A stretch of DNA of 64,000 nucleotides, taken from positions 1 to 64,000 of the forward strand of contig CACIKF010000005.1 in the NCBI GenBank assembly GCA_902587165.1, read 5' to 3'. Position numbers and translations under genes: made by a program. This stretch comes from Puniceicoccaceae bacterium. Lineage in GTDB: Bacteria; Verrucomicrobiota; Verrucomicrobiia; Opitutales; Coraliomargaritaceae. The stretch's first letter is position 1, and every line of letters begins with the position of its first letter. The notes under the pieces were generated by a model, which worked only from the letters and a program-made list of their open reading frames with translations, was not told the origin of the DNA and did no database searches. Positions 14,099 through 22,280 of the stretch are shown here, piece by piece.

Positions 14099-14430
14099 TT
14101 TCGATTAGTAGCAAAATAAAAAGTGCCCAAAAGTGCCTAATATACAAGCATATTGGTGCATTTTAGTGCGATTCCTTGCAACTTAGTTGCCTTTGATCAG
14201 GACACAAAAAATCCCTTAAATTGTTGTTTTTAAGGGATTTAAAATGGAGCCACCTGTCAGAGTCGAACTGACGACCTGATGATTACAAATCATTAGGTAT
14301 GTTATTTGTTAAATTGTCCTATTTTTGGTTTTATTAAGTAATTTTAGCCAAATAAGGTTAATATTTGTAGACAATTGGTGCATTTTAGTATCACTTAGGA
14401 ACTTAAAAGTGGCTAAGTAATGGCTAAGTA
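14099..14430. other. Inner attachment region between two integrases
   Basis: This gap holds the inner att copy (14203-14292), two copies of ATTGGTGCATTTTAGT (14152-14167 and 14374-14389) placed on either side of it, and the start of a TGGCTAAGT array. The two flanking integrase genes diverge from it. No protein gene is visible. Confidence 0.7.
14203..14292. repeat. att direct repeat, inner copy (tRNA-Thr 3' fragment plus terminator)
   Basis: It is 90 bases long and matches 22191-22280 with one mismatch. It holds the tRNA terminator hairpin (14205-14240) and the 3' 48 bases of the tRNA-Thr gene, minus strand, from CCA into the anticodon loop (14245-14292). The match stops at the anticodon loop, where integrases of this type often cross over. 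It has no 5' half, so it is not a functional tRNA. Confidence 0.9.
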
Positions 14431-14440
14431 ATGGCTAAGT
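14410..14440 (+). repeat. Three tandem TGGCTAAGT repeats, 11-base period
   Basis: Copies lie at 14410-14418, 14421-14429 and 14432-14440. The last overlaps the start codon of the integrase gene. Matching motifs sit at the other end of the element (22144-22171), so they look like arm-type integrase binding sites that may also let the integrase repress itself. Confidence 0.65.
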
Positions 14441-15678
14441 CTAATAAATTATCAAAAAATCATAAGGACTATTGGCGCACCCGTGTAGCTAAACTTGGTT
14501 ACAAGGACATACGCACTGGCAAGAAAGTCTATGCAAGAGATTATTCAGTCAGAATAGCTCATAAAAAGAGGCGTGAAATATTCCCATTACATACCTCAAA
14601 CCAGAAGGTTGCGGGAGACGAAGCATCTCGCATTTATAATTACCTAATCATAAATGGCTGGGATTTAACCTTAGATAAATTCAAAGGCACAGAAGAGCAA
14701 GTTGCAGAAATATCTACTGTAGGTGATTTGATCAAATGCGCCAAGAGGATGTCCTCGGTCAGCCCCATGACGTTTAGGCAGTATGCGGGAGCGTTAAGAC
14801 GAGTTGTTTCTTCAGCAAAAGGATTCAATTCTAAAGACAAAAAAAGATTTCGACCTGACGTCGATGGCAACGACAAGTGGCAGGCTAAGATTGATTCGGT
14901 AAAACTAGAATCAATTACATCTGATTTGATTATAAGCTGGCGCAACCAAGAGTTGGATGGGCTTAATCCCAGCGATCGTAGATCAAGACAGACAACCATC
15001 AACAGCACTCTCAATCAGGCTAGGTCACTTTGGAAATACTGCGACTTCCCTAACCCATTTAAAGATTTGAAATGGAAGCAGACTACAAAGCGATTCAAAC
15101 CTCAAATAGATGCTTCTGCCCTTCTATTCTTAGCAAAAGATGAGCTTGAGAAGGACTACTTTGAGCAATACAAGGCCCTAACCTTATGTTTATTTTTAGG
15201 TTTACGTCGATCTGAGGCTGATTGTTTAACATGGGACCAAGTAGATTTTTCTACACAAAAAGTAAGAATTGATAATACGGATTACTTTAAGCCTAAGTCT
15301 GAAGACGCTATTCGTGAAATTCCAATACCGAGGTCTCTTTTTGAAAACATTGATTATTGGAAGAGTATTTCAGACGAAATTTTTGTCCTTAGTGGAGGGC
15401 TTGCTAAGCCCAACTGCTCTTACGATTATTACCGCGCAAACGCTACCTGGAAGCCGCTGCTCAAGTGGCTTAGGTCAAAGGGTCTAGAAGCTAAGAAACC
15501 CCTTCATGATGTTAGAAAATTAGCTGGCTCATTAATGTATGAGAATCACGACATTTACGCAGCACAAAGATTTCTAGGTCACTCAGATATTAGAACTACA
15601 ATTTCGAGCTATATTCATGAAGGTGAAAAATCATTTGATATTATACCTGAGAGGCCTCGGCCTAAGTTAGTCTCCTAG
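14431..15678 (+). CDS. Tyrosine site-specific integrase of the 8-kb element
   Basis: 415 residues. A basic N-terminus (MAKSNKLSKNHKDYWRTRVAKLGY) contains a strand-rich arm-binding region. The catalytic domain has LFLGLRRSEADCLTW (arginine near residue 258), LHDVRKLAG (the HxxR motif, near 360), FLGHSDIRTTISSYIHEG (histidine near 384, tyrosine near 394). The full R-H-R-H-Y set is present. It differs clearly from the integrase at 12845, so the two islands have different recombinases using the same tRNA. The ATG lies within the third TGGCTAAGT repeat. Confidence 0.9.
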   Translation: MAKSNKLSKNHKDYWRTRVAKLGYKDIRTGKKVYARDYSVRIAHKKRREIFPLHTSNQKVAGDEASRIYNYLIINGWDLTLDKFKGTEEQVAEISTVGDLIKCAKRMSSVSPMTFRQYAGALRRVVSSAKGFNSKDKKRFRPDVDGNDKWQAKIDSVKLESITSDLIISWRNQELDGLNPSDRRSRQTTINSTLNQARSLWKYCDFPNPFKDLKWKQTTKRFKPQIDASALLFLAKDELEKDYFEQYKALTLCLFLGLRRSEADCLTWDQVDFSTQKVRIDNTDYFKPKSEDAIREIPIPRSLFENIDYWKSISDEIFVLSGGLAKPNCSYDYYRANATWKPLLKWLRSKGLEAKKPLHDVRKLAGSLMYENHDIYAAQRFLGHSDIRTTISSYIHEGEKSFDIIPERPRPKLVS

Positions 15679-15837
15679 TCTCTTGACCTGCTATTGGGGT
15701 ATATTGGTGCAAGTTCCCGCCAGAAGTGAACCCCCCATGATATAATAATCCCAGACCTATCAATTAGGAGCTGATTTTAATTTAGCAGAGTAATTCTACT
15801 TTGCGTCAGTTACCCTAATTTGCATGGGCAAATTATT

Positions 15838-16029
15838 ATGAGAAATACAGGAGAACTATTAATGAAGCCTGATGAAGTTTGCAGGCTTTTGGGTATTAGC
15901 AAAAAGACACTGCTAAAATATAAAAACGAAGGAAAGCTTGGCGTGGTGATGATCAATGCGAGGACGTTTCGCTATAAATATCAGGACGTTCAATCGATGA
16001 TTGATGATAGTGAAAGGAGGGCAGCTTAA
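15838..16029 (+). CDS. AlpA/excisionase-like HTH protein
   Basis: 63 residues from ATG 15838; a TTG at 15820 would extend it by six. MKPDEVCRLLGISKKTLLKYKNEGKLGVVMINARTFRYKYQDVQSMIDD is a HTH_17 winged-helix domain of the AlpA/excisionase group, which in satellites acts as excision factor or activator. Its TAA overlaps the ATG of the next gene (TAATG at 16027-16031), so this and the next two genes form a translationally coupled operon. Confidence 0.75.
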   Translation: MRNTGELLMKPDEVCRLLGISKKTLLKYKNEGKLGVVMINARTFRYKYQDVQSMIDDSERRAA

Positions 16030-16391
16030 TGGATTACGGAACCTTCTTATATCCTCGCTTACACAAGCAAGGCCCTTGGGTCCTACAAACAGACCGAAAG
16101 GAAATCATCGATCTGATGCAAGAGAGACACTGGAATGCCAAGTCTTCCTGGCGACAGTGTCTTTCGGGAACGTCTTTCGGTTTCACCCGAAGCTTCGATT
16201 CCGCTAGGAACGCTAAAGAATCAATAACCAGGATTCTGAGCAAACTTGCTACAGATTCTTTTGAATTCATCGAACTAGGTGATGGTAAGGGATGGGAAAT
16301 CAAAATCGCTTTAAGCCCCAAAATGAAGAAAAATCATTTTGCATCATGCACGGGAATTAATTCGGAACCTGAACTAAAGGATGCCGCCTGA
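16029..16391 (+). CDS. Hypothetical protein between HTH and primase-like genes
   Basis: 120 residues, soluble, unknown. The middle (ARNAKESITRILSKLATDSFEFIELGDGKGWEIKIALSP) could be a small alpha/beta or winged-helix domain. Start and stop both overlap neighbouring genes (TAATG and TGATG). In satellite-type elements this position often holds a replication accessory or regulatory protein; nothing in the sequence proves that here. Confidence 0.65.
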   Translation: MDYGTFLYPRLHKQGPWVLQTDRKEIIDLMQERHWNAKSSWRQCLSGTSFGFTRSFDSARNAKESITRILSKLATDSFEFIELGDGKGWEIKIALSPKMKKNHFASCTGINSEPELKDAA

Positions 16392-21948: not shown

Positions 21949-21998
21949 GTTATTAAGGTGGCACTCGAGACCAAGGTATCAAGGGGAAAAATTTTCTC

Positions 21999-22058
21999 AG
22001 GCACTTGATGTATATACACACATCAGCAAGAGGTCAGCCAAGCGAACCCCCGCCCCCT
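21999..22058. repeat. Intergenic repeat, partial copy 3
   Basis: CAGGCACTTGATGTATATACACACATCAGCAAGAGGTCAGCCAAGCGAA matches the first 55 bases of copy 2. The later blocks of copies 1 and 2 are missing. It lies between the second lipoprotein gene and the element's right end. Confidence 0.65.
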
Positions 22059-22143
22059 AGCCTGCTCTAAGACAAAGCTGCCTGGATAAACCCACTAGCC
22101 GCAGCATCCAAGCCCGCAAGAGGCCAGTTGTGGAGTTCATAAA

Positions 22144-22171
22144 TGGCTAAGAAGTGGCTAAGTGACTAAGT
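22144..22171 (+). repeat. TGGCTAAG-type repeats at right end of element
   Basis: TGGCTAAG (22144-22151), TGGCTAAGT (22155-22163) and TGACTAAGT (22163-22171) mirror the array at 14410-14440. They lie 20 bases from the right att copy and are candidate arm-type integrase sites. Confidence 0.6.
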
Positions 22172-22190
22172 GGTAAAGCCGATACACACT

Positions 22191-22280
22191 CACAAAAAAT
22201 CCCTTAAATAGTTGTTTTTAAGGGATTTAAAATGGAGCCACCTGTCAGAGTCGAACTGACGACCTGATGATTACAAATCA
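22191..22280. repeat. att direct repeat, outer copy overlapping intact tRNA-Thr
   Basis: It matches 14203-14292 with one mismatch (A/T in the terminator loop) and overlaps the 3' part of the intact tRNA-Thr gene, so the element has restored a complete tRNA at this end. Confidence 0.9.
22193..22228 (-). terminator. Terminator of the tRNA-Lys/tRNA-Thr transcript
   Basis: On the minus strand AAATCCCTTAAA pairs with TTTAAGGGATTT, followed by a T run, just after the tRNA-Thr 3' end. An identical hairpin apart from one loop base is part of the inner att copy. Confidence 0.8.

What the first reader, a model, noticed from the sequence alone, without database searches (positions are those of the whole stretch)
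14203..22280. Two att copies bound an ~8-kb element in tRNA-Thr
A 90-base repeat with one mismatch marks both ends of the element. The outer copy rebuilds a full tRNA-Thr, and the inner copy keeps only the 3' half plus the terminator. The cargo is integrase, AlpA-like HTH, unknown, primase-like, large secreted protein and two lipoproteins. There is no capsid or relaxase gene.
Basis: partly seen in the sequence, partly recalled or inferred. Interest (0 to 1): 0.75.

Follow-up and report, generated by a model that had tools for sequence, protein, structure and literature searches.

The report
Small mobile island in tRNA gene
An 8-kb DNA element has inserted itself into a tRNA gene of a bacterium that is probably a marine Puniceicoccaceae; it carries genes to move and copy itself plus surface-protein genes, and decayed pieces of similar elements sit at tRNA and tmRNA genes of related species.

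Summary
Confirmed. Two 90-bp copies (89 of 90 identical) lie at 14203-14292 and 22191-22280. The outer one is the 3' part of an intact tRNA-Thr plus terminator. Between them are an integrase, an AlpA-like HTH / unknown / DnaG-type primase run, a secreted protein and two lipoproteins. Relative G006 has an empty site: tRNA-Thr is followed directly by a rhodopsin-carotenoid cluster. Here that cluster lies on another contig behind a third att copy, so the finding is one unit of a tandem array (about 39 kb on two contigs, joined by inference); a second integrase starts at 14098. Both ends carry TGGCTAAG repeats at 11-bp spacing, likely integrase arm sites. The cargo end carries conserved non-coding modules A and B, which recur around secreted-protein genes near tRNA-Thr, -Ser, -Met, -Ala and ssrA in related genomes, twice next to decayed primase pieces. 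Terminal A often stands just inside an attachment end, while arm repeats and target gene differ (16 of 26 against 3% of control windows). Best reading: a minimal satellite-like integrative element (int-alpA-primase, as in PICMIs) with surface-protein cargo. Transfer route and the roles of A and B are inferred, not shown.

The parts
22191..22280 (-). outer att copy (att1): 3' part of intact tRNA-Thr plus terminator
14203..14292 (-). inner att copy (att2), shared border of element 1 and the next element
22233..22308 (-). tRNA-Thr(TGT), target gene, left intact
14410..14439 (+). left arm: three TGGCTAAG copies at 11-bp spacing; the third overlaps the integrase start codon
14431..15678 (+). tyrosine integrase (415 aa)
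   Evidence: Phage_integrase 2.7e-14, phrog_1 6.2e-31
15820..16029 (+). AlpA/excisionase-like HTH protein (TTG start as listed; a later start is possible)
   Evidence: HTH_17 3.1e-7, phrog_7735/phrog_66, TIGR01764 excise 27.4 bits, just under its cut-off of 28.8
16029..16391 (+). unknown 120-aa protein; start overlaps the HTH stop, stop overlaps the primase start
   Evidence: no family; no relative outside the own genome in 43 family genomes
16391..17413 (+). DnaG-type (CHC2/TOPRIM) primase-like protein
   Evidence: TIGR01391 9.3e-6, far under its cut-off, Toprim_2 0.0016; 3-sequence profile hits DnaG structures 2au3/1d0q at 1e-5
17574..20303 (+). large secreted protein with a short BspA-type LRR segment (909 aa)
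   Evidence: LRR_5 1.3e-6; N-terminal part shared with proteins of G008, G013 and G000 C9
20353..20380 (+). degenerate start of module A before B
20396..20482 (+). module B, copy 1
20483..21058 (-). lipoprotein 1 (191 aa)
   Evidence: no Pfam; lipobox by eye
21095..21164 (+). module A, copy 1
21161..21253 (+). module B, copy 2
21385..21948 (-). lipoprotein 2 (187 aa)
   Evidence: no Pfam above cut-off; lipobox by eye
21992..22057 (+). terminal module A, next to the attachment end
22144..22172 (+). right arm: TGGCTAAG at 22144 and 22155 plus a variant at 22162
12845..14098 (-). integrase of the neighbouring element 2
   Evidence: Phage_integrase 2.4e-12
12479..12727 (-). HTH (excisionase-like) of element 2
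   Evidence: HTH_17 4.1e-5, under cut-off; phrog_66 5e-4
1..14202 (.). element 2 (assumed to fill this stretch), cut by the contig start
   Evidence: window = G000:C5:1-64000; genes

Best explanation
It is a small integrative element of the int-alpA-primase (satellite-like) kind. Shown: its ends, an empty site in a relative, matching short repeats at both ends, and further att copies and a second integrase at the same site. Inferred: Int binds the TGGCTAAG arms and the tRNA-Thr core and joins the circular element to the tRNA; the element supplies an identical 3' part plus terminator, so the tRNA keeps working. Int may damp its own gene through the arm copy over its start codon. The AlpA-like protein drives excision, and the primase helps copy the circle, with host or helper enzymes doing the rest (a DUF3987 gene stands next to a distant relative of the primase but not here). 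Lacking capsid and relaxase genes, it leaves the cell in particles of a helper phage. Module A, usually just inside the attachment end, is a cis site for replication or packaging. The cargo (LRR protein, lipoproteins) changes the carrier's surface. Repeated insertion at one tRNA builds tandem arrays; later decay removes int and primase and leaves cargo with A/B modules behind. I put site-specific integrative element at 0.95, excisable and self-copying at about 0.7, phage-borne transfer at about 0.4.
For: Att pair and intact tRNA. Empty site in G006. Third att on C13 followed by a stretch matching element 1's right end, TGGCTAAG arms included, then by the chromosomal cluster. TGGCTAAG x3 left, x2 plus a variant right; the same pair of arm copies at tRNA-Thr in G015, another genus, and a near match in G008. 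HTH, unknown and primase ORFs overlap stop to start. Decayed primase 3' pieces upstream of a secreted-protein ORF in L119 and in G008 (L114, L117), with A behind it in L119 and L114. Terminal A followed by 10-12-bp-spaced repeats in 16 of 26 cases against 593 of 20000 control windows and 1 of 14 internal A. int, alpA and prim were needed by the PICMI prototype, which has no capsid-remodelling genes (PMC10803314, passages).
Against: No circular form, reads, helper phage or particle DNA was seen. No relative of the primase or Int1 and no exact match to the A or B patterns in viral contigs, no near match in phage records. Int1 has only distant relatives in 43 family genomes (best 30%), so the intact element is known from one MAG. 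The primase family hits are weak and its structure model is poor (pLDDT 44). The MAG is 79% complete and the array is split over two contigs. 10 of 26 terminal A copies show no arm repeat.
Confidence: 0.72

Rival explanations
1. An integrative mobilizable element: it leaves by conjugation, using another element's relaxase, with module A or B as its oriT.
For: No capsid or relaxase family found; A has a short inverted repeat next to a C-rich stretch (by eye) and often lies near one end.
Against: No consensus structure predicted for A and almost no covariation in B; no relaxase among the ORFs tested in element 1, element 2 or C13 1-16 kb (not every ORF was tested). Primase plus AlpA is the satellite pattern.
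Confidence: 0.2
2. A stranded, no longer mobile island: integrated once, now kept for its surface proteins.
For: Other copies found in the family are decayed or lack int and primase; no intact close relative.
Against: int, alpA and primase frames are open here, att copies differ at 1 of 90 positions, arm repeats are present at both ends.
Confidence: 0.25
3. A and B are the recombination sites of an integron-like cassette system, and the element merely carries an array.
For: Ordered A|B junctions between genes, different genes between them, same gene families at different sites.
Against: No integron integrase here: Int1 scores 18.5 bits against a cut-off of 265 for TIGR02249. A occurs without B at element ends. 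Genes lie in both directions, and some units are B-gene-B or A-gene-A. Other integrases of the genome were not searched for IntI.
Confidence: 0.1
4. Remnant of an ordinary prophage.
For: The integrase, excisionase and primase families also occur in phages.
Against: No structural or packaging family among the 7 ORFs; the few remnants with primase pieces show primase, surface gene and A close together.
Confidence: 0.05

Closest known systems
PICMI (phage-inducible chromosomal minimalist islands, Vibrionaceae; PMC10803314, passages seen)
   Same: int + alpA (PF12728 among the models) + primase as core, no capsid-remodelling genes, direct-repeat ends, small size (6.1-kb prototype; 8.0 kb here), marine bacteria
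   Different: PICMIs sit at fis and use a DUF3987/DUF5906 primase; here the target is tRNA-Thr and the primase is DnaG-type without DUF3987. Helper phage not shown. The authors never found more than one per genome; here an older remnant with the same right arm lies at the same site.
Tycheposons (seen only through passages of PMC10872708; the original paper is not held)
   Same: tRNA-bordered, tyrosine recombinase, cargo, small-genome aquatic bacteria
   Different: described there as 4-200 kb, with nutrient-related cargo in Prochlorococcus; here surface proteins and the A/B modules
P4-like satellites and PICIs (papers in search listing only; details recalled)
   Same: int, alpA, primase, helper dependence as a class
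   Different: no P4-type primase-helicase, no capsid-size genes, different phylum
Integrons and gene cassettes (recalled)
   Same: gene units separated by conserved non-coding sequences
   Different: no IntI in the element, no covarying stems found, end units hold half a spacer, mixed gene orientation

Membership tests
tRNA-targeting integrative element (tyrosine integrase) | att duplication rebuilding the tRNA, integrase beside one att | tested here: met
tRNA-targeting integrative element (tyrosine integrase) | empty site in a relative | tested here: met
   G006
tRNA-targeting integrative element (tyrosine integrase) | arm-type repeats at both ends | tested here: met
   TGGCTAAG at 14410-14439 and 22144-22172; binding not tested
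PICMI | int, alpA and primase together, no capsid genes | tested here: met
   definition
PICMI | integration at fis | tested here: not met
   site is tRNA-Thr
PICMI | primase with DUF3987/DUF5906 | tested here: not met
   only CHC2/Toprim/dnaG hits; DUF3987 lies next to the distant primase of G058 but no family was found next to that of G004
PICMI | packaged by a helper phage | not testable with these tools
   no reads or phage data
Tycheposon | tRNA border, tyrosine recombinase, cargo | tested here: met
   description from PMC10872708 passages
Tycheposon | marker genes of the original definition | not tested
   original paper not held
ICE/IME | relaxase or oriT | tested here: inconclusive
   no relaxase family in the ORFs tested; A and B could not be tested as oriT
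Integron | IntI integrase | tested here: not met
   Int1: TIGR02249 18.5 bits against cut-off 265; rest of genome not searched
Integron | attC hairpin sites | tested here: inconclusive
   no predicted structure for A; B 15 nearly unvarying pairs, 1 with a double change
Prophage | structural and packaging genes | tested here: not met
   7 ORFs

The most novel reading that the evidence does not exclude
A and B are cis-acting modules of a mobile pool that moves surface-protein genes between islands anchored at tRNA and tmRNA genes. Elements of many integrase types share one conserved end (A), and gene units bounded by B and A are exchanged among them and outlive them, so that small-genome bacteria swap their LRR, lectin, pentapeptide and lipoprotein surface repertoire by this route.
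Probability: 0.3. Interest if true: 0.75.

Novelty: new variant of a known kind. Interest (0 to 1): 0.5.

Why it matters
It suggests a route by which a small-genome bacterium gains and loses surface proteins, and adds a minimal int-alpA-primase element in what is probably Verrucomicrobiota; my three searches on that (open-licence PMC papers only) brought up no paper that by its listing describes such a satellite. If A is the replication or packaging site, it gives a short, searchable tag for helper phages and for hidden remnants, and makes the transfer route testable.

Tried and rejected
Integron reading of A/B: no IntI in the element, mixed orientation. A/B as known RNA: no Rfam match to them at E up to 1; DNA folding no better than shuffles for the four sequences folded, two stretches on both strands; A no consensus structure, B almost no covariation. 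A/B as transposon ends: no transposase among the 8 proteins scanned, no terminal inverted repeats by eye. Prophage: no structural genes. Structure of the primase: model too poor to use, so no fold search was run. Helper phage or viral copies: viral-contig scans with primase, Int1, A, B and the C-rich half of A gave nothing (exact patterns for A and B); phage records gave nothing at megablast sensitivity. PDB search with Int1 alone found nothing. In G012 a second att-like copy (54 nt, 85%) lies 6.4 kb from tRNA-Thr with broken pieces resembling Int2 inside; not followed further. I did not classify the downstream neighbour of tRNA-Thr in each of the 18 loci fetched; several contigs end at the tRNA. 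A paper search on Puniceicoccaceae with leucine-rich repeat listed only 2 unrelated papers.
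Full report
WHAT IS THERE. The window is the start of contig C5 of an unnamed 1.85-Mb assembly in 28 contigs, 79% complete. The one named relative found is a Puniceicoccaceae MAG, ALOHA_ZT_54, that holds a 90%-identical primase fragment; family and phylum of our genome are inferred from that. Two 90-nt copies, 89 of 90 identical, lie at 14203-14292 and 22191-22280. The right copy is the 3' 48 nt of tRNA-Thr(TGT) 22233-22308 (-) plus its terminator; tRNA-Lys stands next to it. GC is 0.37-0.45 inside and 0.51-0.55 just to the right, 22-28 kb. Within the interval run integrase 14431-15678, HTH 15820-16029, a 120-aa unknown, and a primase-like protein to 17413; the last three overlap stop to start. 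Then come a 909-aa secreted protein and two lipoproteins on the other strand. Families: Phage_integrase 2.7e-14, HTH_17 3.1e-7, Toprim_2 and CHC2 weakly; excisionase and, weakly, primase families in PHROGs; dnaG 9.3e-6, far below its cut-off, in NCBIfam. A profile of three primase sequences finds DnaG structures 2au3 and 1d0q at 1e-5.

EMPTY SITE AND ARRAY. In relative G006 the tRNA-Thr and terminator are followed at once by five genes. Two proteins near the site, which I name hisB and hisD by eye, are 99% and 94% identical to ours. In our genome the counterparts of the five genes (90-96% aa) lie on contig C13 17427-23250; by Pfam they are beta-carotene dioxygenase, lycopene cyclase (weak), a protein with amine-oxidase and phytoene-synthase domains, a polyprenyl synthetase and a rhodopsin. 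On C13 they are preceded by a third att copy at 16612-16699 (88 nt, 97%) and a 0.7-kb stretch that starts with element 1's right-end sequence. The order is therefore: tRNA-Thr, element 1 (the finding), att2, element 2 (its own integrase at 12845-14098 and HTH, taken to reach the contig start), a gap of unknown size, C13 1-16611, att3, an old remnant, the rhodopsin cluster. That is 22.2 + 17.4 kb between tRNA and cluster, where G006 has none, G011 has 2.4 kb, and G015, with a less similar cluster (25-61% aa in the matches listed), has about 8 kb. The link between C5 and C13 is inferred from att order and the relative, not from reads. The scan of 56 genomes (own included) with the tRNA-Thr/Lys stretch found matches in all 56, many only to the tRNA parts; I fetched 18 loci.

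HOW IT INTEGRATES. TGGCTAAG occurs three times at 11-bp spacing at 14410, 14421 and 14432, the last over the integrase ATG at 14431, and at 22144 and 22155 with a variant at 22162. In the whole 64-kb window this 8-mer occurs 9 times on both strands, 5 of them here. Two copies at the same spacing stand at tRNA-Thr in G015 (another genus); in G008 one copy with a degenerate second stands in a near-identical stretch. Arm sites on both sides of the core, one over the int start, are the layout of a lambda-type integrase (recalled); binding was not tested.

MODULES A AND B. A (about 60-70 nt) and B (about 85-90 nt) repeat inside the element's cargo end; a stretch holding both matches 11 places in this genome. 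The same search in 37 genomes (own included) found matches in 9, all in the same family. Of the 24 family genomes in that call, 9 of the 17 with at most 2.0 Mb (rounded sizes) and 0 of the 7 larger ones are positive. A stricter B pattern hits 5 of 273 genomes of the order, all in the same family (G008, positive, was not in that draw). In every adjacent pair seen the order is A then B, with a short form and a longer form that has extra bases between C runs. They lie beside genes for secreted proteins: of 8 proteins scanned, 6 gave LRR_5, C-type lectin, pentapeptide, Ig or outer-membrane-barrel domains and 2 gave none. By eye 9 ORFs end in F(F/Y)RFK(M/I)(T/S)E, 8 of them just before A. The sites lie near tRNA-Ser(GGA), tRNA-Thr, tRNA-Met, tRNA-Ala and ssrA: intact tmRNA genes were called in L091 and L094, and copies of the tmRNA 3' end lie behind or among the gene units. 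Other sites show no such gene in the stretch fetched. Of 26 terminal A copies (not followed by B) 16 are followed within 180 nt by a direct repeat of at least 8 nt at 10-12-bp spacing; 593 of 20000 control windows from the same loci and 1 of 14 internal A copies are. 8 of 26 have a tRNA T-arm-like motif within 320 nt, against 144 of 4000 control windows; some others carry altered tmRNA ends that this motif misses. The 10 terminal A copies without arm repeats count against a universal rule, although one of them, L042, has the degenerate second copy noted above. Loci are not all independent, since several come from one genome.

LINK TO THE PRIMASE MODULE. In L119 the primase C-terminal part (residues 198-340, about 90%, in two frames) is followed by a secreted ORF and then A. 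In G008 short primase ends lie between tRNA-Ser and an ORF resembling the start of the 909-aa protein, with A behind it (L114), and before another such ORF, with no A in the stretch held (L117); a fourth piece (L116) has neither. So the order primase - surface gene - A is probably older than this copy, and cargo outlives the mobility genes. A full-length close primase was found only here among 43 family genomes; 5 of 43 have any match. The distant one in G058 is followed by DUF3987, the one in G004 by a protein with no family; DUF3987 is part of the PICMI primase definition.

HORIZONTAL SPREAD. A and B differ as much between copies inside this genome (mean 90.4 and 90.8% identity) as from copies of another genus, G015 (90.1 and 92.2%), while hisD falls from 92% (G006) to 71% (G015) and 67% (G020) at the DNA level (local alignments with a length filter, so means lean high). 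Copies in G006 (A 81%, 3 comparisons), G020 (A 83%) and G010 (B 82%) are lower. This fits either a shared mobile pool or strong selection on a cis site; the data do not separate the two. The same gene families stand at different sites in different species, for instance 70% over 328 aa between G015 tRNA-Thr and the G000 ssrA site, and 83% over 141 aa between G008 C39 and G013 C11. At tRNA-Ser the core genes of G000, G011 and G013 are 90-96% identical, while the cargo is different in G011 and only 47% identical over the shared part between G000 and G013.

MECHANISM AND LIMITS. Shown: ends, empty site, att order (across a contig gap), repeats at both ends, module anatomy. Inferred: excision and copying by the encoded proteins, cis role of A, phage-borne transfer, surface function of cargo. 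The unknown 120-aa protein has no relative outside this genome in 43 family genomes. Folding gave no support for a structured A and almost none for B. No viral or phage copy was found.

COMPARISON. By gene set it works like a PICMI but fails two defining features (fis site, DUF3987 primase), so I do not file it as one. It shares tRNA border, recombinase and cargo with tycheposons, whose original paper I could not read; I saw passages of PMC10872708 and PMC10803314 only. Searches for Verrucomicrobiota with tyrosine recombinase, tRNA and genomic island, for Puniceicoccaceae with integrase and mobile genetic element, and for Verrucomicrobi- with phage satellite gave 0, 0 and 2 papers; judged from the listing only, the two are not about such an element. 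The library holds open-licence papers only.

VERDICT. Finding real; reading supported and extended. Interest 0.5: an integrated tRNA island is ordinary, but a tandem array with a minimal element in this group, and an end module shared across different arm repeats and targets and tied to surface-protein cargo, is not.

Noticed in passing
G000 contig C13 1-16010 (L004): Defence-like gene block between the contig end and att3: DrmD-like helicase (8.9e-187), PIWI/pAgo-like protein, C5 methylase beside a protein with an NgoFVII-type DNA-binding domain, NOV_C protein, SNF2 and UvrD helicases. Probably part of the tRNA-Thr array.
   Followed up: partly
window 220-2289: Schlafen-group-3 helicase protein matching the PADLOC candidate PDC-S41 over nearly its whole length (2.6e-170), in element 2.
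   Followed up: no
window 14153-14167 and 14375-14389: A 15-nt identical stretch (TTGGTGCATTTTAGT) on both sides of att2, one copy in each of the two neighbouring elements; not explained (read by eye).
   Followed up: no
window 14119-14137: Element 2 has its own arm-like repeat (AAAAGTGCC twice at 10-bp spacing) between its integrase and att2.
   Followed up: no
G000:C12 (L091 3438-7415), G011:C2 (L094), G013:C8 (L155), G002:C7 (L153): Repeated tmRNA (ssrA) 3'-end fragments with gene units between them, looking like decayed elements that used ssrA as target; behind an intact tmRNA in L091 and L094, no tmRNA called in the stretches of L153 and L155.
   Followed up: partly
G021:C1:2932231-2932813: The tRNA-Thr target stretch appears twice, 411 bp apart and equally similar, as if the tRNA-Lys/Thr pair were duplicated.
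   Followed up: no
contig ends in G003, G007, G019, G026, G028, G029, G030: Contigs end within or a few bases from the tRNA-Thr/att stretch, as expected if repeated att copies break the assembly there.
   Followed up: no
L049 (G012:C23): tRNA-Thr with a partial att copy 6.4 kb away and broken pieces of an integrase resembling that of element 2 (24-40% identity) inside.
   Followed up: partly
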